Assembly (NCBI RefSeq): GCF_963678975.1
Contig: NC_089274.1
Span: 19,299,633-19,363,632, forward strand
DNA from: Dysidea avara
Lineage: Eukaryota; Porifera; Demospongiae; Dictyoceratida; Dysideidae
DNA length: 64,000 bases
Reading direction: 5' to 3'
Shown here one piece after another: positions 1,396-39,038 of this stretch. The first letter of the stretch is position 1. Each line of letters begins with the position of its first letter. Under the pieces are notes generated by a model. That model saw only the letters and a program-made list of their open reading frames with translations, searched no databases and was not told the DNA's origin. The position numbers were made by a program, and so were the translations under genes.

Positions 1396-1951
1396 ATGGC
1401 TGGGAGTGACGAGTTGGTACAAGATGTCATAGACGGCGTTACCGTCTATCGAGTAAGCTTACATGTAGCCCAGCTGAGTGCTATTGATATCTTAACAGAT
1501 AACAGCAAGTAGTTACGATAAGGTGGATTACCAAGGGGACCCGGACCAGGAAGCAGTGCAGAGGATGAAGAAGTCCGGTTGGTGGGGAGACAGACCCGAC
1601 AGCCTCAAAGTAGAATGCCTGAGCGAGACGCTCCAGAAAAAGAGTGGACGTTCCCACGACGAGTTGAGCAAACGCGGAGTGTACATGTACTTAAAGAGGG
1701 GCGATAACAAGATGTTTATCGGCAGCGCTGCACACGAGACGCTGTTTGAAAGACAACTACGCCATCTTAATGCGGCAGCCTTCACTGATCCGCAACCACT
1801 TGATAAATTCGACCAACAATTAAGTCGCCAATACAACCAGGCCAACTGGCACTACTACGCCATACCCATGAGCGACCCGGATAAAATAGAAGAAAAAGAA
1901 AAGGAATTAATAGCTCAATACAAATCAACAGAACACGGCTACAACACGTGA
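1396..1951 (+). CDS. GIY-YIG domain protein, copy 1
   Basis: Two exons, 1396-1452 and 1523-1951, are joined in phase 0 across a 70-bp GT-AG intron and give 161 residues. Exon 1 encodes a short leader ending VIDGVTVYR. Exon 2 begins VDYQGDPDQEAV, then a GWWGDRPDSL block, then a GIY-YIG nuclease-like core: GVYMY (GIY position), FIGSA (YIG position, with F for Y), an arginine in FERQLRH, a glutamate in EEKEKELI and a terminal GYN. These are the known landmark positions of the GIY-YIG fold (metal-dependent DNA cleavage), so catalysis is possible but unproved. It is a stand-alone small protein, unlike SLX1 or ANKLE1. The stop lies 85 bp from the stop of MNAT1 on the other strand. Copies 2 (19321) and 3 (35092) share the exon structure. 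Its cellular role is unknown. Confidence 0.8.
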
Positions 1952-2016
1952 ATGCTGAGTATGGTATAGAATTGAGCCACATGAAAACATGATTGTACAC
2001 ATTAAGTAGAATATTT

Positions 2017-2022
2017 TTTATT
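2017..2022 (-). terminator. AATAAA polyadenylation signal of MNAT1
   Basis: The minus strand reads AATAAA 15 bp past the MNAT1 stop, inside the 85-bp gap between the convergent stop codons. The 3' UTRs of MNAT1 and the GIY-YIG gene must therefore abut or overlap. The signal is kept in the duplicated block near 19971. Confidence 0.6.
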
Positions 2023-2036
2023 GACTGCTGTAAATA

Positions 2037-5000
2037 TCATGTGTACTGATTTGTCCTTTGTTGTTCGCTGTTCATCAGTAAACAAGAGAAAGCTTCTTGT
2101 AGAGCACGTTGACATGCCAGTGAAGAATTGAACCCACCGCCACTTGCAACATCTCTCACGTGCTGCAGATAACTGTGATGAGATGAACTAGCACACCATC
2201 ACACACATTGTTACAACTAACCCTTGACTAGCTAGGTCTTCTAGTAAAGGTGGGGTCGGCCCTGTGGTCTCCATGACAAGTGGTTCATAGTGATATACTT
2301 CACCTTGTTCAAATGGTATGGGCTCAAATGAAGCAGCTCCCTGCAGTGAGAAGGTTTGGTGACTACAATAGAATTTGTGTAATACAAGTATAAGGGGGAA
2401 AAAAATTTAAGTTTGATTGTTAGCATAGAAATAAAACAAGGGAGGCCTATATCTACATCCGAAGATATACTAGTGGACATTTAATCAGTCAGGTCAACTG
2501 AAGTAGGGATTAAATGTCCACTAGTAAACCTTCAGGTGTAGGTGACCTCCCTTGTTTGACTATGATCCCTAATTGAACTTAAAATTCTTTACACTATGAC
2601 TATTATTGGTGAACCCATGCATACCAGGCTTATTTGTTTACTGAATGCACGCCCCAACTATCAGTTACTGAAATAGCAAAGTGGCCATTACGCTTCATTT
2701 TAACTATGTTCAGCCCGTTACACAGTGTTACAAATGAAGAACCTCTGCAATCAATCCAGTCACAAGGGAAAACTCCCGTCAAACATCTTTTTAATCCTTA
2801 GTCCACGGTAACCAACTGAGACTCCGCCTGAATCAAGTCCACAACTAGGGAAGTCTTTGACATAGTGACTGATGGCAGAGCGGGTTCTGCAGATGCGTGA
2901 CTGATGGCAGAGCGGGCTCTGCGGATGCATGACTGCAGGAGCAAGAAAGACAAACAGCATCTTAACCAGTCCATGACAACAGAGTCAGCACCCAGTAGTC
3001 CAGAAATAGTTGCCTAGCAGACTTGACCTGGAGGAGAGGGGGTTGGTGAAAGAGGCACACTCTATATGCAATTATTAGCATGTAGAAGTCAACGAGGAAT
3101 AATAATAATATTAAATACAGGATTATATGAAAGGCAAAAGCCTATAATTTGAGTCTTGATCCTAAGATTAACAATACATCTAACTACATTATACAGTTCA
3201 GCAGCATAAAAATAAGTTATCTTTGTCAAGGGTTGCAACTCATTGTTCCCCCACTACACTGAAAGGAAGTGCATTCCAGTCATTTATGATTTGTTGAGAA
3301 TAAAAATGTTGTCTAACTGTATTGGTGGAAAAAGGTTTAATTTGTAAGGATATCCTCTTGTACTTCTTGTAAAGAACAAGGATTGATCAAGATGTAAGTT
3401 GCCATGTATGATATTGTATGTTGTAATCATATCACCATTCGTATGAGAGACGACTAATGGATGCTTTTCTTTGAACTTATTCAACTAGATTCTCATCACA
3501 TTTATAAAATGGTCCCCAAATAATATTTCCGTATTCAAGGGTTGGTCTTGCAATAGCCTTATGCAGATAGAGGAGTGTTTGAAAATTCAAATTAATAAAT
3601 GACTTTCAAATAATGAAAGTATGCATTAGAAGTGGACACTTGTACTTCCCACAAAACACTGTTCAGTTTTTTCAACCCAGAAACCATTCATTACAATGTC
3701 AAGTTGAACACTATCCTGGATGTTGGCAGATGAAGGATAGTCCTGCTGAGCTGGGCAGCTCTGGTTCAACAGCAACTTCTCTTCCAGGTGATGGGTGGGC
3801 TGGAGATTTGCTGTGGAAAGGTCTCAAGCACGCTGAAAGGATGGTCCCAAGTAGATACGCAAACTGAAAGACTGTAGAATTGCAAATTGCAGACTTGCAA
3901 GATAACCGTTCAGCATTTACAGCAGATGGATCAGTATCCTGGCCCAGAATAAAATTGGAAAGAGGCTAGGTAATATAGTGTGATGAGAAGCTGAAAACTC
4001 ATCAGTAAAAATGAATGTTGAATTCAAGAGTCCCAATCCACCATAGTGAGGTGGAAGGGCAAACAGTCCACGAACCATATCACTTGTACCCAGTCAGAGC
4101 AAGAATAAACACTATCCGAATATTGTGTTGTAATGGCTCACAAATGTTAGGCATGGTGCAACAAAGGTACATCCAGTGGCTTGAAAACCCATGGGTAAAG
4201 GCCATCATGCGGTGCTACCACGAATCAACACCTTGCACTGTCAGCAAAGACATAGACAAGTAGTCTATTGACTCCAATACAAACTTGTTCACCAGATCCC
4301 TTTGAAAAAGGCAGGACAGTAAAATATGCCACTCACAATACGTTTCTATCAATATCTGAGAGTGTTTATTTTAGTTTTTGGTAAGCTGTCCTGGCAAAAG
4401 GGGCAGTCTATTAGTGGCTGTGCCTGGTTTGCGGGTGTGATGTGATTATAATTAGCCGAAGCGTAGGCACTATTATTGGAGAAACCAAACTTATAGTGCA
4501 CAGCAACCCAATCATTAATGTTTTAGGAAGTAGTCTTCTGTGTGATAAATTCAAAGACACTACTTCAGGTAACAATGATCTAGCACAAAAGATGATTCTA
4601 ATCCCGAGTACTTGTCTGCATGTCTATGGCAAAGATCAAAGGAGGGCACAGGTATAATCATGAAACATGCATTGCATGTAATGCGGTACTGAAGTGACGT
4701 CGAACATCAAGCCCGTAGCTTTATCCAATATTGAGTTACACTTGTCTGAAGGTAAGCAGAAAATTCCGCTAAATAATAAAAAAAAAATTTTAGCAACTTT
4801 TTGGAAGCGTTTCAGGTTGTACTGAAAACTTAGTTGAAACTAACCAGCACTGCTAAGGCACCATGAAGGTATTGTTACTCTGATTTGTGAGGCTGGATTT
4901 AGGGTGATATTTTTGGCCAGAAAAGCCCAAACCTTCATATACAATGATACTGTATGACAGGAAACTTTGATGAAATTTCATGTATCCACACTTCATCAGT

Positions 5001-8000
5001 ATTGACAAATTAAATATTCAAGAAATTAAAATACTTTTTGGGGTGCTTCATGAATTAAAGTAAGACGATTCGTCAACTTTTTCTTTTGTCAAAATTTCCT
5101 GTCACATGGTAGATGACTTAGGACTAACCAACATGGCTCAAGTATCCTGATTTTACATGTCAGCTTACTAAGGGATGTGGTTTACTAAGTGTCTGGATTA
5201 CAGAGGTGTCCTTACATTACACGATACATTAAACAATCACAAAATCATTACCATTGAGGTTACTAACAAAGATGGTTGCTGTAGATTGGATTGCTTGGAC
5301 ACCACTGGTTCACTGCTAGTATGGCTAGCTAGCACTTCAGAGCCTGATAAGTTAGAGTGTATCTGTGCACAGTGAGTAGTAAAGTAACGTTGTGTGTGGA
5401 GATGTACCCTACTAAGTCATCCAGTAACGATTCCTTGTTCTTCTTCCTTGCCTTCTCAGCTGCCTCTAGCTCCATTCTCTCTTCTTTCCTTTTCAACTCT
5501 CTCTCTGCTTGCTCCGTATCCATTTGTGCCTGGAATGCTTGATTGTCCCGTTCCTATAGCAAGAATAATAATGATACAACCAAGTGCTATTGACCGCCCC
5601 CCCCCCCCCCACTTCACACACACACCAACATTGAAACCAGGTCACTACTGTTGACCCGGATGACCTGCTGACCTGGATAGCAATCCGGATCTGACCCAGA
5701 TTAATTTAAAGTGAGGCTTGCATCAACTGCTACATTTTGAGTACCAACTAGCGCATTAAGCACAAGGGTGTCTATACTTAATGATGGTAGTCAGTGGGCA
5801 TGATTCCATGTAAGTTTACATAAAGCAAGATACGTTTCCTGCAAGTAGGTATGGCTTTGCGCATACCTAACACACCATAATTTTATAAAAATTATGACAC
5901 ATTCCCAATATAAAGTGGGCGTGGCTCACAAAAGAAACTGGCCTTTACCTATCTAGTACAATAGCAATGGATTAGTGGACGTGGCTCCACATAAACCAGC
6001 AGGCAGCTATGAGCATGGTTTCGTACATACCTGTAGACTTTAATATCACTAATAAATGGGCATGGCTGCACGTATGGTTGCAGGCAGTTGTCTAGTAAGT
6101 GGGCATGGCTCATGAAAGAAGCTGAATTGCAGCAGGACTTGACTATGATGCGTTTATACAATTCCGTATCGTCCAACCAAACAATTTGCTTCGCACGTGA
6201 TCCAATCCGGGTCAGACCCGGATAATTTTTAAGGTGGGTCTGACCCGGTTGATCCGGATGACTCAACTCGGTTTCAATGCAGACACACACACACACGCAC
6301 ACACACACAACACACACACAATAAGAATAATAACAGCAATTAACATCAGTGGCATAGCTAAGGTGGGTACTGGTACGGCACAGGCCCAACCAATCAGTTC
6401 CAGTGTCCTACCAACTCAGGTACTCACCGTACGTAGCTAGCTATAGCGCCAAAGGAGGTGCAACTTCCTACAGCTACATATATAACCTATTAATCAATAA
6501 TTATTATGCAAACAAAACGTACATACAGCTAGTGTCCTACTTGAGATGACAATTTTTAGCTGTAAAATGCCACCAAATTGACTCTCAGCATGTAATTTTC
6601 AAAAATTTTCTGGGGGGCATGTCCCTGGACCCCCTAGCTGTAGCATGTATTTTTGTTACAATGGCTTCTTTGGCACATACCGTATAGCCAAAGTATTTTG
6701 AGGGACAATATTTTGGAGATCAAGCAAAGTAGCTAAACATAAATTTGTTGCAGGTTTACAAGTAAGTATGCATACAATGGTGCCCAACCAATCCTTCTGG
6801 GCTAGCTATGCCACTGTACTGGTTAACACAAAGAGCTACAAGGAATTTATTTAGCTTTGCATGTACAGCTGTATGTTTTAAAATTTCAAAGAGGAAAGAG
6901 TTTTAACAGTTTAACTTAGAGTACTCTTACTATATACGATTGAGGGGCCAACTATTTAAGAATCTGTATCATCTGTGAATTCAGTCCAACTGAAGTCAAT
7001 CAAAAAATTACCCATGATTGTGGAGAAGAAGCAGATTGTACACAACATTGATTTCATATTTAATCGCTTGTATGCACACATTTATTAACGTAATCAACTA
7101 GTTGTTGTCACCTATCCCTCCTTCTGTTGTTACAACTACAAGGAAAAATTAGGAATTATAAGTTTAATTAGGGGTAAAAGTAGTGAAACAAGGTACACCT
7201 GCAGATATACTGGTGGGCATTTAAGTACTTGTTTGTTTACTTTCTTTGGGCGTCCACTAATTCACTGAACAGAAAGGGATGGAACATAGAACAGAATGAA
7301 CCACTAAAACAAAGAAAAGAATAATTTTTGATACCACTTAATTATTGATATTGTACAAGGGGTTCACATTACAGCTTGTTTCATCTTCAATTCTTTGCAA
7401 ATTCTATACAGGAGGCAAATCCCAGTCAGCGGTTCTGGATGGATTGTAAGCTTTCAACTAAGAAACATGTAGGTACAAGGTTTAGTGCATAGATACACTG
7501 CTAGTGCATGTGCTCCTCTCTAACTCCACAGGAAGAAGCAGTATGGATGCTTCTTGCGTTCTCAAGGGCTCATGCAACATGATGAGCAGCACTGGAAAGC
7601 TTTTGGAAATCCAGCTGGGGCAGTGTCAATCTAGCCAGAGAATGCCTCAGTCTAGCCAGAGAATGCCTCAGTCTAACTGGTATATCAAAAAATCATTGTG
7701 AGAAAGTGCAAACTTTCATGGTCATTAGATTAGTTTTGCACTTTCTTTGTAACTTGCATGGTTGATCTATAGTTGACCTAAGCGCCACAACTACAGTGGT
7801 GTGCGTTCAAAAATTCAATCTGCGCTTTTTGAGGAAACTGTAGCTAGAACCACACCGACATACTACAGCCATGCTTAGCATATACCATAAGTATATATGG
7901 CCTTCACACAACAGCAGCAGCTATTAAGCTATAAATTACACATAAACATCTATCACGTTCCTAGCTACTAATTTAATAATACAGAGGTGAACACAAACGA

Positions 8001-9335
8001 ATTCACAATGTTGTAAATATGGACAACAATGAAAGTACTTTCTGAATAGCTTGAAATTGTTAATTATTTCCGAATTGTATTACAAAGTAATACTTGCAGT
8101 GCAGTGGAAGAATTATACTTGAACTTTAACTTGATGGGTGAAACACATAAAATTTTTATGTTTATGGTATGGTATTAATGTTACCGAAAAGCCACTTAAG
8201 TGGCTACGAATGTGTGCCCATTGAAATCCTTCCATAGCACCTTCGATCCGGGGGCTACAGAGCTGAAACCACTGTCATTTTATTCAGGGGGCCCAGGTGT
8301 TTTGAACAGTGTATCGTGTGAAGCCAAGAAAAGCAGCCAGGGAAACCAACACCGCTGGGAATACACACAAGAAGTATAAAACACGCATACTGTTTACATA
8401 CCTGTGAAAAATCAGCCATAACTTTTGTCTCGGTGGTGGTACGCCATTCGAATAAAGATTAAAAGACTCCTCATGTGTTGGCGAGTCGATTGGTATATGG
8501 CATGGTGTCATCACACATAGCAACAAGATGGTGGCTCGGTTTTTATTTTCGTGTTACGAAGAAGAAACAGTCCAATGCATGCTGAGTTCTTTCACTTCGC
8601 AGTGTGTGAGTTCTGTGTGTTACTGTGAAACTTTTTAGATGCCTGAGTAGGATAAAGAGAGGTATTTTGAATGGTAATTACTTAATTAAAAGATGGTTTT
8701 CACACGTTTCACGCATAGATCACACAAGCTGCTATTGTTGTCTCTTGTGTTTTATAAAAAAATTCAGGAAACAACTATTCTATTCAGTAGAATACTACAA
8801 GGTTATACAATGGACCTTATCTGCAATGACGTCAAAGCACAAAATGGCGGCTACTAGTGTGGACACTTTTGTATAGAGAGTATTGGGAGAGATGGCGGTT
8901 CGCTAATGTAAACGTTTACATACTGCAGCAAGGGGCAAGGGGAGGCATACATACTTAATTACAAGACAAATGCGTGTGGTTTTGCGTCGATAGCAAATCT
9001 TAAGTCTGGTTTCGCCTGGTGAGACTATTTCACATCACCACATCATGCTAACTAGCCTCTTATCTTTATTATCCAATAGTTCCATGTCGTGAAAACCACA
9101 AACAAAGCTTATTGTAGTGAAATGCCCACACTAAGCACGGCCATTTAGTGAATTTTTGACGTCACTGTGGATAAGGTCCATTGATACAAGCCGTATACCT
9201 GGTTTTAACACACTTTTGGAAAGCATCCCGATTATTAAAGTGTTCTATACTTTGGCTGAGTGTTGGGATTATGTAGGTGAACTTTTAAGTGTTCAAATTA
9301 ACAGGTTTCGGTTATATACAGATTCTCTTTCAATC

Positions 9336-9423
<88 letters not shown>

Positions 9424-11807
9424 CACCCACACACACCTGTTTAGCTCTGTTCTTGAGTATCAACTTCTGGTTAGACTTCCTGTACTCGTCCATTGATTTT
9501 TTAATTGCTTCCTCATTCATATTATTAGCAAGACTGTATACTAAGTATAAATAAGCACATTATAAATACTGCAATTAGCACATGGCTATAAATTTGAGGG
9601 ACAATTTTTTTTACCATTTTCTGTGCTTTTCAATAAAATCCTTTGATCAAGGCTTTATCTGTTGATAATAATAATGTGTTTGCTAAACTGTTAAGGAAGC
9701 TAATGCCACGTCAACTTATTTAGTTGTTTCATGGGCCCCAACGACAAACTTTTGTCATGAATTTTAATATCAAAGAACTTTTTCATAAGTGGAAAATTAC
9801 TACTAAAAACTCCTCGTATTCTTCAAATGCATTTAACTACATCTTTAAACAGGCTGTAGAAACAGGTGTCCTGCAGACCTTCAGCACTTGTGCTACTAAA
9901 TAAATAAATGCTGTTTACCTGCAAACATCTTCTCACTCAGAAACACACTATGGCTGAAAACAGGTTGCTATTTCATTGAGACCACACACCATCACAGTAC
10001 TTGTGCTTTTTTTGTTTTTGTACTCCTTTGTCCTGATTTCTGTTAATATTTCAGACTTACCCCAACCCAATTTTCTTTTTATATTTTCACCCGTGAAACA
10101 ACAAATCAAGCTGAAGTGGCCAAAACTACAAAAACTTGTACCTCAAAAATTCAAGTCATAATGATGTATATTGGCCTTACTGATATGTTCTACTTCTTCT
10201 AAATAATCGTTATATTCTTCAAGAGTATTAAAATCTTCTTCCCGTTTATTGTAGCTGTAGTAAAACAAAGATTTTAACTGGTAATGATGCAGTGAGTTGA
10301 GCACATACTCCTTTAAGACTTTCTTTCTGATGTTGACGTCTTTCTCTACATAGTCATCTTCAAATTGTTGTACACGGAACTGACTGCGTCTCAGTGGGAC
10401 CCCACATTGTGGACAAGCTGCTGATGGTCGAGTGAATATCGCATCAACACACAATCCACACCTATAGATCAAAAAATAATAGAACTCTCTCTAATCCAAC
10501 ACCTCTATAATCTAACACTGTTTGCTGCACCAATAACACTACGTATTACTATGCATTGCCACCTCAGCAATCCAATATTCTCGAATGAAAATTGAGCACC
10601 AACAAGTGTTGGACAAGAGAAATACTTGTACACAGAAGCATTACAATAGGATATTCTTGTTAATGAGTTAATGAGGTCATGACCTATTTGAATGTGGTGG
10701 TTTCTGAAGATATAAACAACAGAGAGCTTCAGTGCAAACTGTGCTTTGATACTATTTCCTGTTGATGGCTATATAGACGTGCTAAGAAGCTAATGAATAT
10801 GCACAACTGGTTATTGTCAGTACTTGCTTACATGTGTGCAGTACATTGGACAAGGTAGGAAATTGCATGCTAAAAGCTGTCACTAAATTCTAGCATACAG
10901 ATATTGAGTATACATATACTTGAACTTGGTCTGTACTAATAATAATGTTGGCAATTTTGGCTGGCTGATCAGAATCAAGGAGTTGTATAATCATTTTGAA
11001 ACCAGTTCGAAAAATTATAAATGTACCGCTACAGACAGACCAATTTTTGGTTTATTTGCTAAAAATGATGGTTGCTAAATGATCAAGGCCGTTTTTGATG
11101 ATAAAAATCACTCTAACTAAACTGTTTTAGACTTGGACCAAATTAAATTGCAACACTTGTGTACATGACACAATACCTGTAGCTACAACAAGTTCAGTAG
11201 CAAACTAGTAATTAATTTTAAACGTATCTTCACTTTTCTGTGAATAGATATATCATAATCACTCCCAGTGATCACAAAAAACTGTTTTATTCAGATGTCA
11301 AAAGGTTTATAACAATACCAGATATAATTGTAACCATAGTACTAAACAATGTGAGCCCTGTGAGCAAATGTTCATAGCTACACAGACACACACATGTGCA
11401 ATCACATATACAGAATGTCACAATTAACCAGTCAATTAATATGCAAATGTTTAATAGTACACGTAGTCTCTACAGTACAGCACAGCACACAGTGTACCAA
11501 CAAACCAGAGCATGGCTGCAGCACATGGAGGGAGGAACCCAACAACCCATTATATCAAAGAATCAGGATAGGAGAGAATAGAGGATCTAATCAGTTAGAC
11601 AATGGAGGGCGTGCACAGAAGGTCAGTTACCCCACCCATAGAATACAGAAGAGCCATATAATCTGTGCCCTACCCGGTGTGGACATGTTCAATACAGATT
11701 TAATAATGCTGGTACACTCACAGTCGGTGTCCACACACGTTCACTAGTAGTTTCATTGATGGTTTCTGGTAAGAGCTGGTCTGACATCGAGGACATATTT
11801 GTTCCAT
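2037..11807 (-). CDS. MNAT1: CDK-activating kinase assembly factor MAT1 (TFIIH subunit)
   Basis: Nine exons in transcript order: 11807-11722, 10461-10309, 10254-10181, 9540-9437, 5553-5413, 5362-5252, 5192-5169, 2340-2222, 2172-2037. All junctions are GT-AG, the phases fit, and they give 315 residues (human MAT1 has 309). MAT1 ties CDK7 and cyclin H together and anchors the kinase to TFIIH in the nucleus. The RING finger is complete (C5, C8, C25, H27, C30, C33, C45, C48). It is followed by the conserved FRVQQFEDD and YNKREEDF blocks, a charged coiled coil (exons 4-5), and the C-terminal CDK7/cyclin H-binding part with [13 protein letters not shown] and [13 protein letters not shown]. Exon 7 is a 24-bp microexon. 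Intron 2 is 54 bp, a multiple of three and free of stops. Intron 7 carries a 2.7-kb insertion. Broken copies of exon 1, exon 2 and exons 5-9 lie elsewhere in the window. Confidence 0.94.
2434..2557. mobile_element. hairpin MITE
   Basis: The left arm (2434-2486) runs AAACAAGGGAGG to GTGGACATTTAATC. The right arm (2518-2557) is its inverted, slightly diverged counterpart and ends CTCCCTTGTTT. About 30 bp separate them. A related single arm occurs at 7186-7226 (GCAGATATACTGGTGGGCAT), so this is a small repeat family. No transposase is seen. Confidence 0.55.
2865..2928. repeat. 32-bp tandem duplication
   Basis: Two adjacent 32-bp units begin GTGACTGATGGCAGAGCGGG and differ at two positions. No coding role is apparent. 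Confidence 0.7.
3070..3605 (-). mobile_element. LINE fragment, end of reverse transcriptase ORF
   Basis: Minus-strand conceptual translation, in several frames, gives typical C-terminal motifs of CR1/RTE-like LINE ORF2: [11 protein letters not shown], then [12 protein letters not shown], then STRGYPYKL, then [10 protein letters not shown] and a stop. Frameshifts and internal stops show it is dead. It ends in a short TTA-rich tail near 3070-3110, as expected of a 5'-truncated LINE. It sits in MNAT1 intron 7, in the same orientation as the gene. Confidence 0.75.
5629..6279. mobile_element. inverted-repeat element with GACCCGGAT ends and internal GTGGGCATGGC repeats
   Basis: CATTGAAACC at 5629 pairs with GGTTTCAATG at 6270-6279. 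Inside both ends are CCGGATC/TGACCC-rich stretches in inverted order. The interior has at least five spaced copies of GTGGGC(A/G)TGGCTC-like sequence (about 5795, 5915, 5975, 6056, 6098). The open frame at 5949-6389 is made by these repeats and is not a gene. It lies in MNAT1 intron 4. Confidence 0.4.
6281..6320. repeat. CA microsatellite
   Basis: Imperfect (CA)n directly next to the inverted-repeat element. Confidence 0.85.
6440..8800. other. MNAT1 intron 4, mostly featureless
   Basis: No gene is supported. A 21-bp tandem duplication (7630-7671, unit TCTAGCCAGAGAATGCCTCA plus G) and a single MITE-like arm (7186-7226) are visible. The open frames at 7504-7701 and 8284-8526 have no recognisable motif. 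Confidence 0.5.
8808..9183. mobile_element. 376-bp TIR element with CREB-like TGACGTCA sites
   Basis: Ends are CAATGGACCTTATC and GATAAGGTCCATTG. Inverted similarity continues inward for about 60 bp through TGACGTCAAA and an ATGGC(G/C) block. It is flanked by ATA on both sides, a possible 3-bp target duplication. No transposase is seen, so it is non-autonomous. Confidence 0.65.
9337..9432. repeat. CA microsatellite
   Basis: (CA)n of about 95 bp begins right at the donor of MNAT1 exon 4, whose intron starts gtgtgtgt on the minus strand. Repeat-length change here could affect use of the splice donor. Confidence 0.9.
10279..11390. repeat. left arm of a large inverted duplication
   Basis: This stretch contains MNAT1 exon 2 and intron 1. 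It is repeated in inverted orientation at 12303-14946. Matching pieces seen by eye: 10300-10510 with 14720-14946; 10760-10830 with 13505-13560; 10910-11150 with 12530-12800; 11340-11390 with 12303-12350. The unpaired centre holds MNAT1 exon 1. Confidence 0.75.
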
Positions 11808-11960
11808 TGCATGCACACCTGGTTTCGGGATTTCCCCTGTTCACGTGTACTGTTGAAAGTCCCTCTTGAACACTGGGTGATATGGCTGTTAGTAGTACTA
11901 CTATGATAGACGAGGTCTCGAGCTAGTTACGACGAGTTCTACCAAATGAGTGATTCTCAA

Positions 11961-11994
11961 GTCTCGCTTGCCGGATTATTCTGGCAAACGAGAC
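11961..11994. other. imperfect hairpin upstream of MNAT1
   Basis: GTCTCGCTTGCCGG pairs with CTGGCAAACGAGAC across six bases. It lies about 155 bp upstream of the MNAT1 start codon. Function unknown. Confidence 0.45.
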
Positions 11995-12249
11995 TCAGCT
12001 GGCAGTGTAGTATTAAACGTCTGTATTTAAATGCTGGGATTGGAGGGATTTTCTACTTTGACTCCTTTTCTGTTACACCTTATTAGCTACAAGTAATTGA
12101 AGTCTAAGTCCTTGTGATTAGGTAATCCTAAGGCTGCAGCACAATTGCTGTTAGACTTTCAGTGCTGGTCACTGTAAAGTGTTAATAATAATGATGACTT
12201 ATTTTGCTTGTAACATTTTGTGTGTGCCACGAGTGCGCGTGCGTGTGAG

Positions 12250-12289
12250 CATAGATTTATAAACCCCAGGTGGGGTTTATAAATCTATG
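12250..12289. repeat. 40-bp perfect palindrome, 19-2-19
   Basis: The arm CATAGATTTATAAACCCCA is followed by GG and its exact inverse. A second palindrome of identical geometry and the same end sequence lies at 42929-42968. Confidence 0.85.
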
Positions 12290-12302
12290 GTCTGATCCTA
12301 TG

Positions 12303-14946
12303 AGTGTGTAGTTATGAATTCACAGGGCTCACATCATTTAGTACTGAGTAGATTACAGTTACAATTAAAGCTAGTTATAAAACTGGTAACTTTTGACGTC
12401 TGAATAATTATTTCTTTGATCACTGGATTCAAGCAATTTTTGCCCATTAATAATATTAAAGTGACTAATTGCTAGTTTGCTACTGAACTTATTGTACAGG
12501 TATTGCATCATGTAGCTACACAAGTGCTGTAATAAAATTTGGTCTGAGTCTAAAATCAGTTTAGTTTGACTTATTTTTGTCAACAAAAATAGATCTGGCC
12601 TTGATCATTTTTAGCAACCATTATCTTTAGCAAACAAACCAAAAATTGGTCTAGGAATTACTGTTTATAGTGTAGTACACTGCCGTATTATAATTTTTCG
12701 AATTAGTTTCAAAACGATTACTTGGTTTTGATCAACCGGCCAAAATTGCTGACATTATTATAATTAGTGCAGGAAACTGAAGACCAAGTTATATGTATAC
12801 CTGCTGGAATTTAGTCTTTTTCTGTCATGGTACCTAGTGTTAGAAATATACTATATGTGCCTACAGGAAAGGATCTGGCTGAACCGGTCTACTTAGCGTA
12901 CCATATATGGGGCCACTCATTCTTCACACCTCCATCAACTGGTGATATTAATCAAGGGAATGGTTTCGCCTTCATATGCACATGACGCACGTGGCGAGGC
13001 ACAAAGTCTGTTTGTAGAGTTACTGGTTAACATGCAGTGATCACTTTACTATTTCTTTGGAATACTTGCTTGCATAAAGTCTCTCAACTTTAGTAATTAG
13101 ACTATAGCGTGCTCATTGTGCAACACAAGATACATGTAATTCAGCAAACCCTTATTCAGAGTATTTATAATTAATATATACATAAATTATATAGAAAAGG
13201 CGGATCAGCTGGACTTGTAGAGGTATTATTATAATGTATAAACATCATAAAGTACATAAATTCCATGAAAAGTTATAGGTCCCAGGTCCTTGGTCCCCAG
13301 GTCCACTGTTTATATCAACCCTGTATCTACTGTGACTTGCAATGGTATAGTACAAGTATAGAATGAATAATATGTAACAGTCCACAAAAAGTTAAAAGTT
13401 AGATCCCAAGTCCTTAGTCCCTGGGTCCACTGTTTATACCTTCTCCAACTATCAGCATACACCTTGTTAAACCTATTGCACATATGTGTGTGTTTAACAA
13501 ACAAGTACTGACTATAACCAATTGTGCATGTGTATTCATTAGCTTCTTAGCATGTCAGCCACCAACAGGAAATAGTGTTAAAGCATAGCTCTCTGTGTCT
13601 TTATATCTTCAGAAAGAGTACTCATGTGTCCATCCTATATAGTATCATATGGTACAGTATGGTCTGAAAATTACAACTTTAAGGCAGTTATGTAATAATT
13701 AAGATGCTGCCTTTTCGTACTTTGTATCTATACAGTATACGTGCATGATCAACATAGCATCTATAGTGGTCTTGATGAAAGAGTATGGTTTGTTTTTCAA
13801 CCATAATTGTATTTGAAAAGATATCTGTAGATGTACAGTAGTTAAATGGATTTAGAAATATGGAAGACTGTGCTCAGAGTTCATGTAGTGATATCATAGT
13901 TCAATATTTTAGTCATGGAATTTTCTGCAAAAAGGGTGAGTCAGCCCTGGTCTCATCCTTGCAGACCCTTAATTTTCTCCAGGGGGAAAAGTTGTTTCAT
14001 GGGCCCAGCTGATCTGGTCTCTGCATCCTCACAGACCCTTTTCTCTGGGGTAGTATTTATTGATTAGAGATTATAAGCACCAGGAGCCCAAAAGCACCAT
14101 AAGGTGCAAATGGGCTCCTGTAAGCACCTTACTGTGGCCTAAACACCTCATCCAGACTCTGTTTCTAGTCTTATGTACATTATCTCATACTGATAAAGTC
14201 AGATTGTATTACACACTTATTTGACAGCACACGTGTTTAGTCTATTGCAGTTTATACCTATAAACTATATGCCAAACACAGTTAGTGAGGGTGAAACAGA
14301 ATAACCCCCAAGATTTTAATATAAATTTCAAAGATTTGTAGTTTAGCAAATGTTTCCAAAGCTGCAAATTTTGTTTATCCATTCTGTCTGTACGTGTGTT
14401 TCTTTGCTGATTTTTTTGCATTTTGAGGTTTCAACAGTGACCTCAACCTTAAATTGACCATAAATCAGTTGAAGTTTACGATTTATAAAAGTTTATTAAA
14501 TGGGATAGATCAATTTATTAGACAACCTCATTATAGGGACCATGTCAAGTACCTCATTAACAAGACTATTCCATTGTATCAGTTCTCTGTACAAGTATCT
14601 CTCTTGTCCAATACCTGTTGATACTCAAGTTTCATTCAGGTTAGTGAGGATGTTAGAGGTATAGTCTTATTGGTACAGCAAATGGTATCAGATTATAGAG
14701 ATATTCTGCATTATAGAGGTGTTGGATTAGAGAGGGTTCTATTATTTTTGATCTACAGGTGTGAATTGTACATGTGTTAATGCAATATTCACTCGACCAT
14801 CAGCAGCTTGTCCACAATGTGGGGTCCCACTGAGACGTAGTCAGTTCCATATACAACAATTTGAAGATGACTATGTAGAGAAAGATGTCAACATCAGAAA
14901 GAAAGTCCTAAAAGAGTGTGTACTCAACTCACTGCATCATTACCAG
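12303..14946. repeat. right arm of the large inverted duplication
   Basis: This is the inverted, diverged partner of 10279-11390, stretched to 2.6 kb by extra DNA at about 12850-13500 and 13640-14540. The extra DNA includes a tandem duplication of about 120 bp (13267-13440, units containing GGTCCACTGTTTATA) and a hairpin (14081-14120, CAGGAGCCCA with TGGGCTCCTG). The outer edge falls inside MNAT1 intron 2. Confidence 0.7.
14761..14946 (+). pseudogene. broken copy of MNAT1 exon 2
   Basis: The copy keeps the upstream acceptor (gatctacag) and the blocks [12 protein letters not shown] and RKKVLKE. A 4-bp insertion just after the acceptor throws the entry frame out and creates an early TAA. No exon 1 is found in phase upstream on this strand. 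It lies at the outer end of the right inverted arm and cannot encode a RING finger on its own. Confidence 0.8.
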
Positions 14947-15209
14947 TATAACTATTTACAAAAACAACACAAGTAGCTATACCAGCAACAAAAAGCACTG
15001 AAACAAGGAGTAGCTACCAAGAAGAAATTAAAACTGTGAGTGTATTATTTCACTTTAAAAATTGAAGCATCATAAGTATGGCTATATAGGTAAAAACTCT
15101 AGCTAATAGAAGTTTTGCATAATAAAAACACTGAATGAGCTGGTAATAAAAACTGCATGCAAGCATACATAGCCAATACCATAAAACATAAGTTTTTATG
15201 TATGTCCAG

Positions 15210-19095: not shown

Positions 19096-19220
19096 ATCAC
19101 AGGGCGGGAAGGCGGAGCTACATTAAATGGACAACTGTTAGAGACAAGAAATCGAGAACGACTGAGAACACGACCGTCTGCTGCATGTCCTGATGTTGAT
19201 CACACATTTCATTTTTAGTC

Positions 19221-19320
19221 CACGTGACTCATTAAGAAAATGCCTTAAGGCTCACGTTACTCCAAGTTTTGGAAAGCAGCCACACCCACTAATTTACGAC
19301 CCTGGATACTTTCCTCGATA
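19221..19320 (+). promoter_or_regulatory. promoter of GIY-YIG copy 2 with conserved blocks
   Basis: CACGTGACTCATTAA at 19221-19235 and CCACACCCACTAATTTACG from 19280 are unchanged from the copy-1 promoter, while the spacing and intervening bases differ. Confidence 0.55.
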
Positions 19321-19891
19321 ATGGCTGGGAGTGACGAGTTGGCACAAGATGTCATAGACGGCGTTACCGTCTATCGAGTAAGCTCAATACGTGTACCCAC
19401 AGTGACAACGATATATTTGAGCGCTGTCTCAACAGATAACAGCAGGAAGTCACGATGAGGTAGATTGGCAAGGGGATCCGGACAAGGAGGCGGTGCAGAG
19501 GATGAAAGAATCCGGTTGGTGGGGAGACAGACCCGACAGCCTCAAAGTTGAATACCTGAACGAGAAGTTCCAGAGGATGAGTGGGCGTTCATACCACGAG
19601 TTGAGCAAACCCGGAGTGTATATGTACGTAAAAAAGAGTAGCAATAAGCAGATGTTCATTGGCAGCGCTACACACGAGTCGTTGTTTGAAAGACAACTTC
19701 GCCATCTTAACGCGGCAGCCTTCACTGACCCGCAACCACTTGATAAATTCGACCAAGAATTGAGCCGCAAATACAACCAGGCCAACTGGAACTTCTGCGC
19801 CATTCCCATGACCAACCCGGATAAGATACAAGAAACAGAAAAGGAATTAATAGCTGCATACAAGGCAAAAGAACACGGGTACAATGAGTGA
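19321..19891 (+). CDS. GIY-YIG domain protein, copy 2
   Basis: Exons 19321-19377 and 19460-19891 join in phase 0 across an 82-bp GT-AG intron; 162 residues. The leader MAGSDELAQDVIDGVTVYR differs from copy 1 at one position. The core keeps GVYMY, FIGSA, the arginine of FERQLRH, the glutamate of ETEKELIA and the final GYN. Compared with copy 1 it gains one residue in the KKSSNKQMF loop. The frame is fully open although the beta-helix and MNAT1 sequences on either side in the same duplicated block are broken, so this gene has probably been kept by selection. The function is unknown; a metal-dependent nuclease is possible from the fold. Confidence 0.8.
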
Positions 19892-19959
19892 AAACTGGAT
19901 CAGTATGGTATAGACTTTAGCCACACTGATGAAACATGAATAAACTTAAAGTATAATAT

Positions 19960-20865
19960 TTTTATTGATTGCTGTAAAAATCATGTTTACCGAGTTGTCC
20001 TTTGTTGTTCACTGTTCATCAGTAAACAAGAGAAAGCTTCTTGTAGAGCATGCTTATGTAACAATTCAGGAATAAGCAACTTTAACAGCACACCAACAAA
20101 ACCAATTACAACTACAATATCACATGACACAATAGTTACATCATCAATAACAGTTCATTAATTACGGTCAGTCATTAATTACACTTACATGCCAGTGAAG
20201 TACATCTTGCAGGTAACTGCGATGAGATGAGATGAGCTAGTATACTTGCACCATCACACACATTGTTACAACTAACCTTTGACTGGCTATGTCTTCTAGT
20301 AAGGTGGGGTCGGCCCTATGGTCTCCATGACAAGTGGTTCGTAGTGATATACTTCACCTTGTTCAAATGGTACAGGCTCAAATGAACTGCAGTGAGATGG
20401 TTTAGTGACCACACTAGAATCTAGATGACTTGTGACCAACCCAGGTGTCCTTATTTTCCCAGTCAGCTTATATAATAAGGGATGTGGTTTATACAGGTGT
20501 CCTTACATTACATAGTTCCAATGTATACATTAAACAATCACAAGATCATTACCATTGAGGTTACTAACAAAGACGGTTGCTGTACATTGGATTGCTTGGA
20601 CACCACTGGTTCACTAGTACTGCTAGCCATAGCACTTCAGAGCCTGATAAGTTAGAATGTATCTGTGTACAATGAGTAGTACAGTATATGTTGTGATGTT
20701 GTGTGTGGAGATGAACCCTACTAAATCATCCAGTAATGATTCCTTGTTCTTCTTCTTCGCCTTTTCTAGTTTCCATTCTCTCTTCTTTCCTTTACAACTC
20801 CTTCTCTGCTTGCTCCATATCCTTTGTGCCTGGAAGGCGTGATTGTCCCATTCCTACAGAAACAA
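19960..20865 (-). pseudogene. broken copy of MNAT1 exons 5-9
   Basis: Copy of 2037-5565. The exon 9 copy is split by about 130 bp of extra sequence (near 20055-20185) and has lost internal codons. The exon 8 copy (about 20275-20390) keeps [11 protein letters not shown]-like codons. The microexon copy near 20480 is corrupted. The exon 5 copy (about 20710-20855) is frameshifted within its coiled coil and contains a stop. Intron 7 is only about 100 bp here. There is no promoter half, so no MAT1 can be made. Confidence 0.85.
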
Positions 20866-31165: not shown

Positions 31166-31167
31166 AT

Positions 31168-32815: not shown

Positions 32816-32819
32816 TAAT

Positions 32820-32955: not shown

Positions 32956-33045
32956 GTCTTGGTTACAGGTTCAGAATCAGCCTCACTCACATTCAATGCC
33001 ACGAAAATCATTGGTGCCACACCTGAGCAACCATAGTCTCGTCAA

Positions 33046-34086: not shown

Positions 34087-34750
34087 AAGAAATTGTTCTT
34101 AGTTTAACTATGTTACAAGTTAATGACGAGGATAGTCAAGCATTATTCCTCACCAGTGTTGAGTGATCTTCGTATTTCAGGTCACAAGTACACATTAGAT
34201 GCTGCAAGTGCAGCTGTATAGTAGTAGCTAAACACGCCTTGTGGCTGTGTAATGGTATGTACAAAACATGTGTACTGTGTTCACGAGTAGTAGTTAGCAT
34301 AATGGAATAATGGAATTTGCCACCCACCCACATGGCAAAGTTTGTTTGGCTAGGACGCCGGGGAACAGGAAATCAAGTTGGAGTGGCCTTACCTCGCTCC
34401 TTACTATATTATCTATGGTTTATCCCATCAATACAGAAAGAAACCATCATGATTGATGAATGTGTACAAAAAAAAAAAAGAGACAAGTATGTAAATCCTC
34501 GGACTAACATGTGACCACAGATCTGATCTACACAGTAGTCAGTTGTGGGCATGGCCGCAAGGAAAAAAAAGTGTAACTACATGCATACATACATACAAGA
34601 AAAAAAACCCTGTAAGGTAACTACATAACCTAGTTCAGTCAGTCTGGGTCGATAGTCCATTCTTTACAGTTCATCCCAAAAAAGATCCTCTGAGATGCAG
34701 AAATTGATGCCCCAGCCATTTTATTCAAAACAGCTCTAACAGACTTAATT
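34087..34750. other. no supported gene
   Basis: Non-coding. The open frames at 34136-34333 and 34317-34514 have no recognisable motif. Confidence 0.35.
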
Positions 34751-34754
34751 AAAT

Positions 34755-34882
34755 GCTGGTACACTCACAGGTGACTCGGTGTCCACACACGTTCACTAGT
34801 GGTTTCATTGATTGTTTCTGGTCCTCGTTTCTGGTACTGACTTGTGCACATTTGTTCCATTTCACGTGCACATTTGTTCCAT
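34755..34882 (-). pseudogene. broken copy of MNAT1 exon 1
   Basis: The minus strand starts ATGGAACAAATGTG as MNAT1 does, and the splice-donor region (gtgagtgtaccag) and surrounding bases match 11722-11807. Indels destroy the RING cysteine spacing and lead to a stop. A 22-bp tandem duplication (units starting GTGCACATTTG) repeats the start codon region. It is divergent from GIY-YIG copy 3, whose start is about 210 bp away. Confidence 0.8.
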
Positions 34883-34964
34883 TTCACGTGCAAGCACACG
34901 TGCACCTGGTCTCAGAATTTCCCCATTTTATATTACGTAATGCATCCGTCCAGTGCATGGGGGG

Positions 34965-34974
34965 TATTTAAATA
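34965..34974 (+). promoter_or_regulatory. TATA-like box before GIY-YIG copy 3
   Basis: TATTTAAATA lies 118 bp upstream of the start codon. Distance to the transcript start is unknown. Confidence 0.3.
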
Positions 34975-35091
34975 ATGAGATGATATGCACCGTCAGCCTT
35001 GTAATCAGTTGAGTTGAACATTTCTGTAACGAAACTCATGCAGAACGAAACAAGCTGATAGCAAGAGTGACACGTAGACGAGTGAGTAGTG

Positions 35092-38000
35092 ATGGCCACT
35101 ATCAACTCTACGATTGAGGATCACGAAGCCCTCGACGAAACCCTAAACACAGTTACCATTGAAGGTGTCACGTTCTATCAAGTGAGTGTGTGGTACTCAT
35201 GTATACTGTGGTCTTATAGCTCAGGTCTTAGTCTGAATGTAGGTAGTTAGGCCCCTATTCGGTGATTATTAGTTTCTCATCCAGCCTTTCTAATTATTAT
35301 GATGCGGGCGGGAGGGTATTACCATTATGCCATTATTTTATAATATTAACACACTGATGTACAGACCTTGTCCAAATTGTCTTTCTTTCTTACTACAAAC
35401 ATTTCCTTTACCAGCTGATTCTACTTTTCGTGATTGCCAACTGTTTTTCGACAGTCAACTGAAAGCCTGCTTTGATGAAGTCGATAGAGCACGATTGCAA
35501 CTGACACTGCAGCAATTTGCTAAGGAAAACAACAGTTCTCCTGGTGATATATAGCCCATTGTAGCGTTCATCAACAAAAATTATAACAGTTTGGTATCAC
35601 GTGTTCTTCTGAGCATGCGCAGAGTAAATAATGGCTTACCATGCGGTAGCTTAAGATGGATGCGGGCGGTGGATGAGAAACATAGGGGCCTTAAGCCAGT
35701 TCTTTCGTCAGATCTTTTTCTATCTTTTATAGCCTCAGTAAATATTTCGAGGGGGGAATTTTCGCTGATTTTGCGGTTTTGGGGTATCAGAGAAAATTTT
35801 AAGCCTGAAAATATTTTGAAAGTGTTTGCAAATCGTCTAAAATTTTATTTTTAGCAACATTGCCAGAGATGCCAAGGTTCACAACCACTTACGGCCCTGA
35901 CCAGATGCACCACAGAGCCCCCATACGGTTTTTTAAAAAAACTTTTTTTATTTTAAAGGATAGAAGAACTGGCCCTAAATTAATGGTTATCTTATAGGAA
36001 GGCTCTGCACATAACTTACCATGCACATTCAAAGTAGCATATACAAGTTAATAGAGTAATTGTCATTTACAGGATGTAATGGTGGAATGCATATTAAGGC
36101 CAGGCAAACTTGACTACTTGTTTCTCATCCATAAAAATTTGGATTTCCATGTGGGCGGGAGGTCCTTTTTTCATTATTCATTATTAAAATACTCCAAATC
36201 AGTCTGTTACTATAAAGGCTAGCTATAAGAAGTAGCATCTACGTTTTACCACTGTTTCTGAGGTGCAAGTGACATTTGCTGTGCTGTAAAATGATAGCCA
36301 ACCTTCTTAGCATCAAAATACATGTGTACGTGATTGATAATAGCAATAATGAAATTAGATGTGGGCGGGTAAAAAGAGATGCGGGCAGGGATGAGAAACA
36401 ATTAATCAAGTTTGCCTGGCCTAACTGGTAGTTCCTCATACCACATAAACCTGATGCATCTATTATATTAGTGCAGTGGATAGCTAAACTTAGCTTCATT
36501 TATTTTTCCTCGATTCAACTGTGGTCACTTCATGTCTCATCAGTAGCTCTCAGCTTCAGATAGAACTAATCACACAATGAATGGTAACACTGCCACACAC
36601 TCTCCCATCCTTGTAAGCCCACCAAACTTGATCTAATGCCTACTTTAGTGCATTTATAATTTTAATGTTTAAAGATAGAAGTGCCAATAAGCACAATTAC
36701 TGTATTTGGTTGTAGTTACATGGACTTGGAGCTTGTAATTGTTGAAGATAGCTGAGAAGAGTATAGCCGCTCTGCAATGCGTGAGATTAGCAGTTCTGTG
36801 CATGTGAGCATGAGATTGCATGCAGATGAGTGACCCAATGAGACGCGGTATGTCTGCATTGCTCAACTTCAAAATATTTGCCCCTCGAAATATTTACACT
36901 ATATGGTATGCATTTATATCCCACCGCTTAAATTAAAACTAAAATTAGATCTGGCATTTTTTGATGACTGTTGAGTAAAAAATCTTATTCTGTTGCTCAA
37001 GTTTAGTGGTTTTCAACCAACTCAGTAGTGCAAGAAGAGTAGCAAGTGCACTCATGCCTACAATATTCTACATTTTAATGATGGTGACAGGCAAATAACA
37101 GATGACAATTAAGTGAATACTCTAGGTTTGCATATCAAAAAAATTATAGCTGGTAGAAAAAGTTAATGTGAGTGCTCTGGTGAAAAACATAACTTATAGG
37201 TTAGGTCTCAACATGACTCATTCATTGCCTAGATTCATGTGGCAAGCCTGTTTTTCTTTTGTGTTTGGATGGGAAAAGGGTCTAGTGTAGCTCCAGTAGT
37301 CATTGGCTCAGGGTAGTTGGAAAAGGCGGATAAGGTCGGACGCGGACACAGACATTTTCAAAAAGCACTTTTACATTTATATTTTTCATATCTAATGCTG
37401 CTTTTACAGCAGTCTTCGCTTCCAGACCCAGGCGTTGATAGTCATAGCGCTTATCCATTTATAAGCGCATGTGCGAAGGACTAGACCAGCACTCCACAGC
37501 ATGCCAAATACCATGTAGTGTTGTACACATGCTCTAAAGTCTAATATAGTTGTAGAGGTTAGCTTGTATGCCCCATGCAACTTAACTTAGCAGGCCAAAT
37601 CCACAATCTTACGTCTTTTAGTATAAGGCGCAGGCGCTTATACCAAGTGTTGAGGGTTTCAAGGCTACGAGATTAGGTTGGGACATGCTAGATTAATCTC
37701 TATGACTATAAATTATATTTCTAGAGCACGTATACAGCACTACATGGTCTTTAGGGTGCTAGTGTATCCTTCGCACATGCACTTATATAAGTGCTATGAC
37801 AAGATCGACGCCTGGGTCTGAAAGCAAAGACTGCTGTAAAAACAACATTAGGTATGAAAAATAACTGTTATATAAATATAAAAATGCTTTTTGAAAATGT
37901 CTGTGTCCACGTCCGTGTCCAAGTCCGACCGTATCTGCCTTTTCCAACTACCCATTGGCTCAAAACCACCACCCAGACACTCAGGAAACTGATTGGTCAA

Positions 38001-39038
38001 GATTTATAGGTAGCGGGTGCAAACAATGCTTGCATAGTAAGCTCTGACCTGTATAACTGGCCACAAGTGAGGTGTGTTCATGAAATTAAGATCTTGATCA
38101 ATCACAACTCTGACAGACTGTGCTGGCTGGATGGCAATTCCATGCATCATTTGCACCTTGTTATTTGTTATTTACTAGCCTTTAATTTGTGGCCAATATC
38201 AACCAGTTAACATTTTATCTGGAACATAAATCATGATTAGCTATTGGAGTTGCAACACAAAAGAAAACCAAGTGGTTTGGCCATGAGAGACATTCATCAG
38301 CTTTTGCAGCATACCGTATACATACAAATTTTCAAGGTACGTAATTTGCATGGATCAATTAATTCAGTGGTTTTATTTTCGAGGATTGCTCAAGAGAATA
38401 TCTATTAGAAAGCGTAGGGTTACCCTGATAATCGATACTTTTCAAGGATGAAAATTTCACAGAAAGCCAAGCAATCGCGAAATCTGTGAAAAATTACATC
38501 CCTTGAACATTTGTACTTATACAGTACATTTATAGTATCTTTACTGTAGATTGATTATGATCAAGATAATTATGATGAGACAGATTCGATTGATCCAGAT
38601 GTAGCTGAAAGGAGAAAAGAATGTGGTTGGTGGGGATATCACAGTAAGAACTCTCCTGATCGGCTGCCTTCACGTGATCTAAAAGCTGTGCTTGATGACA
38701 AGGCAAAAATCTTAGAAAATGACCCAAACTTGGATTCAACTGGTGTTTACATTTATATAAACAGAAGGAATGATAAGAAGTATATTGGAAAGGCAGCTAA
38801 ACAATCTTTGCTCCAAAGACAACAGCAGCATTTGAGATCTGCTACACATTCAAAGGGCCAAGTTGGAAAGTTTGACCGAACCCTTTCCAAACAACTTGAA
38901 GCAGATGGTTGGGATTTCATTGCAATACCATTTTCAGATCCAGAGAAAATAGATGAAGTAGAGAGAAATCTGGTCCTTCTATATAAAACCTATCAGGATA
39001 AGTGTGGATACAATACCCAAATCCCTGGAGGACGATAA
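35092..39038 (+). CDS. GIY-YIG domain protein, copy 3
   Basis: Exon 1 35092-35181 and exon 2 38550-39038 join in phase 0 (donor CAA|gtgagt, acceptor ctgtag); 192 residues. Exon 1 ends TIEGVTFYQ, matching VIDGVTVYR of copies 1 and 2, and the junction falls at the same place. Exon 2 has the GWWG block and the best GIY-YIG core of the three: GVYIY, KYIGKA with a true YIG, an arginine in LLQRQQQH, a glutamate in DEVERNLV and GYN near the end. The intron is 3.4 kb and holds two Harbinger-like MITEs and a foldback element. It is more divergent from copies 1 and 2 than they are from each other. A working nuclease is possible; the target is unknown. Confidence 0.75.
35250..35690. mobile_element. Harbinger/Tourist-like MITE, copy C
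   Basis: Ends GGCCCCTAT and ATAGGGGCC, flanked by TTA on both sides (35247-35249 and 35691-35693). Shares GTTTCTCATCC and GATGCGGGCGG subterminal blocks with copies A and B. It encloses an open stretch (35400-35554) after an acceptor-like ctttaccag; that stretch does not fit the phase of the host gene. Confidence 0.75.
36098..36421. mobile_element. Harbinger/Tourist-like MITE, copy A
   Basis: Ends GGCCAGGCAAACTTGA and the inverse, flanked by TAA on both sides (36095-36097 and 36422-36424). 324 bp. Internal sequence is an inverted relative of copy B, including the ATAGCAATAATGAAATTAGA block. Confidence 0.8.
37311..37953. mobile_element. foldback element with 9-bp target duplication (MULE-like)
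   Basis: Ends GGGTAGTTGGAAAAGGCGGA and the inverse, with arms of about 220 bp. It is flanked by a perfect ATTGGCTCA repeat (37302-37310 and 37954-37962). Long terminal repeats plus 9-bp duplication fit Mutator-like non-autonomous elements. It lies in the intron of GIY-YIG copy 3. Confidence 0.85.

What the first reader, a model, noticed from the sequence alone, without database searches (positions are those of the whole stretch)
1396..39038. Local family of three stand-alone GIY-YIG genes, each beside MNAT1 sequence
Copies at 1396-1951, 19321-19891 and 35092-39038 share a leader exon ending in a conserved GVT-Y motif, the same phase-0 intron position, a GWWG block and all GIY-YIG landmark residues. 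Copy 1 abuts the true MNAT1 3' end, copy 2 abuts a broken MNAT1 3' half, and copy 3 is divergent from a broken MNAT1 exon 1. Small single-domain GIY-YIG proteins with this leader are not a class I can name in animals. They may be domesticated homing-type nucleases or a new repair or defence nuclease family.
Basis: partly seen in the sequence, partly recalled or inferred. Interest (0 to 1): 0.75.

Follow-up and report, generated by a model that had tools for sequence, protein, structure and literature searches.

The report
Animal GIY-YIG nuclease gene family
Three small DNA-cutting-enzyme genes sit in this stretch of what looks like an animal's nuclear chromosome; they are intact, belong to a family that also occurs elsewhere in the same genome, and fit none of the named families of this enzyme type that could be checked.

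Summary
Three intact two-exon genes (169, 170 and 192 aa) encode a leader ending in G-V-T-x-Y, a phase-0 intron, a GWWG block and a GIY-YIG domain. Copy 3 matches Pfam GIY-YIG above its cut-off (E 8e-6); copies 1 and 2 match only a PHROG homing-endonuclease family. Low-confidence models of copies 3 and 1 have UvrC and I-TevI GIY-YIG domains as best solved-structure matches. The family is not only local: the 550.8-Mb assembly holds three more members, six found in all; one has the same leader exon, one looks like the last exon of a giant DnaJ-domain gene. W-x-G, first Tyr, Gly, Arg, His, Glu and Asn are invariant in 6 of 6, but copies 1 and 2 have Phe for the second Tyr. Copies 1 and 2 show dN/dS 0.31. 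The MNAT1 link is local: duplication, partly inverted, left one MNAT1 and broken pieces. NUMOD, reverse-transcriptase, RING, ankyrin and LEM matches were absent from the scans. Best reading: host nuclear endonuclease genes, probably for genome maintenance; defence is the main rival. Other animal genomes, transcripts and substrate could not be tested.

The parts
1396..1452 (+). copy 1 leader exon, MAGSDELVQDVIDGVTVYR, phase-0 donor GTAAGC
1499..1951 (+). copy 1 exon 2: GWWG block and GIY-YIG domain with FIG (second Tyr to Phe)
   Evidence: PHROG 5123 homing endonuclease E 2.3e-6; of the 12 best PDB matches of its model 11 are I-TevI or UvrC GIY-YIG domains and 1 is a 5hmC restriction endonuclease; no Pfam GIY-YIG match on its own
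19321..19377 (+). copy 2 leader exon
19436..19891 (+). copy 2 exon 2: GWWG and GIY-YIG domain with FIG
   Evidence: PHROG 5123 E 1.4e-6; dN/dS against copy 1 0.31; no Pfam match
35092..35181 (+). copy 3 leader exon, ends IEGVTFYQ, phase-0 donor GTGAGT
38550..39038 (+). copy 3 exon 2: GWWG and GIY-YIG domain with all core residues
   Evidence: Pfam PF01541 E 8.3e-6, 26.5 bits against cut-off 22.6; model's best PDB matches are UvrC and I-TevI
2037..11807 (-). MNAT1 gene (CDK-activating kinase factor MAT1), tail to tail with copy 1; outer limits from likely start and stop codons
   Evidence: frame at 10143-10490 matches human MAT1 E 3.9e-22; other exons read by eye against the recalled MNAT1 order; ATG and stop positions
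19984..20865 (-). broken duplicate of the MNAT1 3' part, next to copy 2; internal stop
12466..14947 (+). inverted duplicate blocks of the MNAT1 5' part, including the RING exon at 14773-14946
34739..34872 (-). broken MNAT1 exon-1 relic, head to head with copy 3
   Evidence: 79.6% to 11694-11817; frame broken

Best explanation
These are host nuclear genes of an animal, not active mobile elements. Each is transcribed, its leader exon spliced to exon 2, and makes a 169-192 aa endonuclease (225 aa for the C8 member): a short N-terminal tail, a GWWG segment, and a C-terminal GIY-YIG domain that cuts DNA strands using Tyr, His and Arg with a metal held by Glu and Asn. Copy 3 (like the C8, C4 and C3 members) has the full active site and should be active. 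Copies 1 and 2, with Phe at the second Tyr, are probably weak or repurposed, yet look kept by selection. The most likely role is genome maintenance on branched or damaged DNA, by analogy with ANKLE1 and SLX1. Shown: gene structure, family, fold-level match, residue conservation, a sign of selection. Inferred: transcription and splicing in vivo, activity, DNA substrate, role.
For: Intact spliceable frames and a shared leader and phase-0 donor in 4 of 6 members. GIY-YIG profile and fold matches. Twelve invariant columns over 6 members: W27 G29 G65 Y67 G80 R90 H94 A98 L112 W121 E138 N155 of copy 3 exon 2; catalytic roles by alignment to I-TevI and UvrC and by recall. dN/dS of copies 1 and 2 is 0.31, bootstrap 0.16-0.54. 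Dispersed members on C8, C4 and C3:16.96 Mb. The assembly's other GIY-YIG hits that I translated (8 of 10 listed) have a Cys pair between the two Tyr and look Penelope-like, unlike this family. In ANKLE1, Y486F lowers cleavage 3500-fold and Y453F, E551A and N565D give no detectable activity (PMC10287932, passages).
Against: No transcript data. Both models are of low confidence (mean pLDDT 52.1 and 58.5); no PDB Foldseek hit is at E 0.001 or below and 1 of 630 viral ones is. Copies 1 and 2 miss the Pfam GIY-YIG model even at E 10. The own-genome PF01541 search at E 0.001 listed none of the six members. Copies 1 and 2 lack the second Tyr. Their exon 2 identity (85%) is hardly above that of the downstream flank (84%, which holds MNAT1 sequence) or upstream flank (80%), so the case for selection rests on the codon pattern. 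Copy 3 against C8 gives only about 0.5 for dN/dS (pS 0.55, pN 0.37). The C3:16.96 Mb member has no leader in 15 kb. The maintenance role is analogy only.
Confidence: 0.6

Rival explanations
1. They are selfish free-standing homing endonuclease genes that invaded the nuclear genome and copy themselves.
For: Profile matches outside Pfam are to homing endonucleases (the NCBIfam ones are below its cut-offs), and by my count 24 of the 50 listed viral fold matches (of 630) are named intron or GIY-YIG endonucleases.
Against: No NUMOD match for copies 1-3 at E up to 10; GIY-YIG at the C end; GT-AG introns at one position; copies 1 and 2 lie in duplicated blocks that include MNAT1; members outside the window are at most 54% identical to copy 3, so no recent spread is seen.
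Confidence: 0.08
2. They are fragments or domesticated endonucleases of Penelope-like retroelements.
For: Penelope elements carry GIY-YIG domains (PMC1564403, passages and parts of sections 6 and 8) and Penelope-like GIY-YIG sequences occur in this genome (named by eye).
Against: The window copies lack the Cys pair seen in the 8 translated loci, have no reverse-transcriptase match, and are small complete genes with a leader exon.
Confidence: 0.07
3. They are innate-defence nucleases: GIY-YIG used as an effector that cuts foreign DNA, alone or at the end of a large sensor-like protein.
For: The C4 member is the last exon after a roughly 1700-codon open frame with a DnaJ exon upstream; PADLOC matches of the C4 exon (PDC-S14 E 5.9e-8) and of copy 3 (UzuA E 6.4e-5); local duplication and divergence.
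Against: 2 of the 4 proteins (copy 1, C8) matched no PADLOC family; the matched stretches lie around the GIY-YIG core and those models carry no description, so a link to defence is inference; Pfam recognises no sensor domain in the large frame (best E 0.0065, below cut-off); no expression data.
Confidence: 0.2
4. The duplicates are haplotype or assembly artefacts.
For: Copies 1 and 2 sit in duplicated blocks of about 80% identity.
Against: Synonymous divergence of copies 1 and 2 is 0.34 and copy 3 is saturated against both; part of the duplication is inverted; identity is far below that expected of two alleles (inference).
Confidence: 0.03

Closest known systems
I-TevI-type GIY-YIG homing endonucleases
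   Same: Core domain, short step from first to second Tyr (11 residues in copy 3), Arg and His on helix 1, Glu and C-terminal Asn (I-TevI residue roles recalled).
   Different: No NUMOD match, GIY-YIG at the C end with a GWWG segment before it, GT-AG introns.
UvrC/Cho
   Same: Among the best fold matches.
   Different: No C4, UvrBb, EndoV or HhH parts: the proteins end 1 to 8 residues after the Asn.
ANKLE1/LEM-3 (COG3680)
   Same: Animal nuclear GIY-YIG nuclease with Tyr, His, Glu and Asn in the active site (PMC10287932, passages).
   Different: No ankyrin or LEM match; Tyr-to-Tyr distance 11 here against 33 in human ANKLE1 (Y453, Y486).
SLX1
   Same: Eukaryotic GIY-YIG nuclease.
   Different: SLX1 has a C-terminal RING and no C-terminal Asn (PMC1564403, table); here no RING match and an invariant Asn.
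Penelope-like element endonuclease
   Same: GIY-YIG domain in animal genomes.
   Different: No reverse transcriptase, no Cys pair.
Nuclear copy of a mitochondrial GIY-YIG homing gene in Ustilago maydis (PMC7593156, passages)
   Same: GIY-YIG sequence resident in a nuclear genome.
   Different: There the nuclease active site is broken and the insertion recent; here frames are intact and the family is old.

Membership tests
GIY-YIG superfamily | Profile match to the domain | tested here: met
   Copy 3 PF01541 above cut-off, C4 member above cut-off, C8 and C3 members below it; copies 1 and 2 only by PHROG 5123 and by homology to copy 3
GIY-YIG superfamily | Fold: three-stranded sheet with flanking helices | tested here: met
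   topology; PDB ranks 1-8 of 155 are UvrC or I-TevI; of ranks 1-12 of 205 11 are, and rank 8 is a 5hmC restriction endonuclease whose fold the listing does not name; models are of low confidence
GIY-YIG superfamily | Both Tyr, Arg, His, Glu, Asn of the active site | tested here: inconclusive
   First Tyr, Arg, His, Glu, Asn 6 of 6; second Tyr 4 of 6, Phe in copies 1 and 2
Orthodox GIY-YIG homing endonucleases | C-terminal NUMOD DNA-binding modules | tested here: not met
   No NUMOD in Pfam scans; domain ends near the C terminus
Penelope elements | N-terminal reverse transcriptase | tested here: not met
   None in Pfam scans of the proteins; genes are small and complete
SLX1 | C-terminal RING; no C-terminal Asn | tested here: not met
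   No RING match; Asn 6 of 6
ANKLE1/COG3680 | Ankyrin repeats and LEM domain before GIY-YIG | tested here: not met
   No such match in the window copies, the C8 and C3 exons or the C4 large frame
UvrC | C4, UvrBb, EndoV and HhH after GIY-YIG | tested here: not met
   Proteins end 1 to 8 residues after the Asn
GIY-YIG superfamily | Metal-dependent DNA cleavage | not testable with these tools
   Needs purified protein

The most novel reading that the evidence does not exclude
A separate animal GIY-YIG family, marked by a GWxG block before the nuclease domain, serves as a transferable effector: as small stand-alone proteins (some with the second Tyr turned to Phe, as regulators or decoys of the active ones) and as the C-terminal cutter of a giant DnaJ-domain protein that senses and destroys aberrant or foreign DNA.
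Probability: 0.12. Interest if true: 0.75.

Novelty: new variant of a known kind. Interest (0 to 1): 0.5.

Why it matters
The animal GIY-YIG groups named in the 2006 classification that I read in part are SLX1, the ankyrin/LEM group (ANKLE1) and Penelope. A multi-member family of small nuclear GIY-YIG proteins with its own GWxG signature, and one apparent fusion to a DnaJ-domain protein, adds a nuclease whose substrate can be tested directly. The pair of copies with Phe at the second Tyr is a natural test of whether catalysis is needed for the kept function.

Tried and rejected
Relatives elsewhere: patterns from the window copies and from the C8 and C4 members found none in viral contigs or genome contigs, and tblastn with copy 3 found none in phages. 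These scans look for close relatives and say nothing about animal genomes, which are not held; the C3:16.96 Mb member was searched only as part of alignment A2. Single-sequence PDB search with copy 3: no match. The second query's seventh own-genome match (C7, E 0.218) lies in a LINE-like frame and was dropped. A leader for the C3:16.96 Mb member was not found in 15 kb upstream. The first candidate leader of C8 (MEDHAAF) was set aside for MASLMTDRLNQKYINGIKVYE, which fits the scan. dN/dS for MNAT1 pieces rests on 24-58 codons each (0.18, 0.63, 0.65) and was not used. Paper searches: (22 of 22 listed; 25 of 72; 15 of 16; 15 of 44; 10 of 10) showed no description of this family in their listings; two returned no paper; 110 (8 of 20) was for ANKLE1; one listed 20 of 9,726 with no GIY-YIG in any of them, so it is uninformative.
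Full report
Genes. The three copies are real and intact. Copy 1 is 1396-1452 plus 1499-1951, copy 2 is 19321-19377 plus 19436-19891, copy 3 is 35092-35181 plus 38550-39038. The introns are phase 0, GT...AG, of 46, 58 and 3368 nt. Leaders read MAGSDELVQDVIDGVTVYR, MAGSDELAQDVIDGVTVYR and MATINSTIEDHEALDETLNTVTIEGVTFYQ. A scan for such a leader plus a GT donor found only these three in the first 38.5 kb of the + strand, none on the 64-kb minus strand and none on six 10-kb control strands. The pattern was modelled on these leaders, so the control strands and the C8 hit are the informative part.

Identity of the domain. Copy 3 exon 2 matches Pfam GIY-YIG at E 8.3e-6, above the curated cut-off. Copies 1 and 2 do not match that model even at E 10 but match PHROG 5123, a GIY-YIG homing endonuclease family, at 2.3e-6 and 1.4e-6, and are 40 and 36% identical to copy 3. 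AlphaFold models of copy 3 and copy 1, built on three sequences, are of low mean confidence (52.1 and 58.5) but have helices and strands in GIY-YIG order (the order is recalled). Their best PDB matches are GIY-YIG nucleases: ranks 1-8 of 155 for copy 3 are all UvrC or I-TevI; of ranks 1-12 of 205 for copy 1, 11 are I-TevI or UvrC and rank 8 is a 5hmC-specific restriction endonuclease. None is at E 0.001 or below. A profile of six members picks only I-TevI and UvrC from PDB sequences, 6 of 6 matches, E 0.027-0.37.

The family in the genome. The assembly has 550.8 Mb in 108 contigs. Searches with copy 3 (6 matches) and copy 2 (7 matches, one dropped as a LINE-like frame) find the same six members: the three here, C8:23231535 (54% to copy 3), C4:16024520 (32%) and C3:16964468 (35%). 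The C8 gene has a leader MASLMTDRLNQKYINGIKVYE with a phase-0 donor 3.7 kb upstream. The C4 member is an exon joinable by a phase-1 splice to a roughly 1700-codon open frame, with an exon matching Pfam DnaJ (E 3.3e-18) further upstream; the splices were read by eye and one transcript is not shown. The C3 member has no leader of this type in 15 kb. Invariant in 6 of 6 are W27, G29, G65, Y67, G80, R90, H94, A98, L112, W121, E138 and N155. The second Tyr is Tyr in 4 and Phe in 2 (copies 1 and 2). In human ANKLE1 the Y486F change lowers cleavage 3500-fold (PMC10287932, passages), so copies 1 and 2 may be weak. A Pfam GIY-YIG search of the same assembly listed 10 other places and none of these six; the 8 that I translated look Penelope-like.

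Selection. Copies 1 and 2 differ by dS 0.34 and dN 0.105, ratio 0.31, bootstrap 0.16-0.54. Their intron is 61% alike against 98 and 85% for the exons, but the flanks are 80% (upstream) and 84% (downstream, holding MNAT1 sequence), so identity alone does not single out exon 2. Copies 1 and 3 are saturated at synonymous sites while 39% identical in protein. Copy 3 and C8 give pS 0.55 and pN 0.37, a ratio near 0.5.

MNAT1. The frame at 10143-10490 (minus) matches human MAT1 at E 3.9e-22. The gene ends 85 nt from the copy 1 stop. Blocks of 1184-5565 recur at 19096-20865 in the same direction, blocks of 10277-11214 recur inverted at 12466-14947, and exon 1 recurs as a broken piece at 34739-34872. 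The simplest reading is that a unit of GIY-YIG gene plus MNAT1 was duplicated and the extra MNAT1 decayed. The link looks like a local accident: near the C8 and C3:16.96 Mb members are a GPCR frame and a metallo-beta-lactamase frame, and I saw no MNAT1 there, though I did not search those stretches for it.

Membership. The 2006 classification (PMC1564403, passages and first parts of sections 6 and 8) defines families largely by added domains. NUMOD, reverse transcriptase, RING, ankyrin, LEM and the UvrC tail gave no match here. The C-terminal Asn is kept, unlike SLX1. The step between the two Tyr is 11 in copy 3, against 33 in ANKLE1. It comes nearest to that paper's small bin of 'unorthodox' homing-endonuclease relatives without NUMODs, which includes 3 eukaryotic sequences.

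Literature. GIY-YIG genes of unstated family have been noted in the sponge Ircinia, there listed among mobile elements under balancing selection (PMC7990798, passages), in mussel (PMC6215123, passages) and in lungfish (PMC4764851, passages). Whether they are relatives was not tested. I found no description of a leader-GWWG-GIY-YIG family in the listings; two of these listings were capped well below their totals.

Mechanism. Most likely an ordinary GIY-YIG endonuclease kept by the host: copy 3 active, copies 1 and 2 weakened or regulatory, substrate probably branched or damaged DNA. Defence against foreign DNA is the main rival. Other animal genomes and expression data were out of reach, so how widespread the family is, and whether it is already annotated elsewhere, remains open.

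Noticed in passing
L018 3350-3724 and L016 4449-10000 (minus strand; C4:16024449-16033724): Apparent giant gene: DnaJ exon, then a roughly 1700-codon open frame with a Cys-rich zinc-finger-like stretch and Gly/Asn-rich repeats (by eye), then a GIY-YIG exon of this family. Pfam gives no match above cut-off for the large frame.
   Followed up: partly
L001-L008 (C15, C7, C1): Penelope-like GIY-YIG sequences with a Cys pair between the two Tyr, some in long open frames; naming is by eye.
   Followed up: partly
window 10277-14947: Large imperfect inverted duplication around the MNAT1 5' end.
   Followed up: partly
window 37311-37953: Long imperfect inverted repeat inside the copy 3 intron, arms 82-95% complementary, looks like a small DNA transposon; another repeat at 36097-36422 is shared with 26973-27301.
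   Followed up: partly
window 46127-58381: Ordinary eukaryotic nuclear genes by Pfam: TRAPPC9/Trs120, an RPB9-type zinc-ribbon RNA polymerase subunit on the minus strand, and a protein with two thioesterase (4HBT) stretches.
   Followed up: partly
window 62547-63283: Tandem array, 5.9 copies of a 123-base unit, itself made of units of about 31 bases.
   Followed up: no
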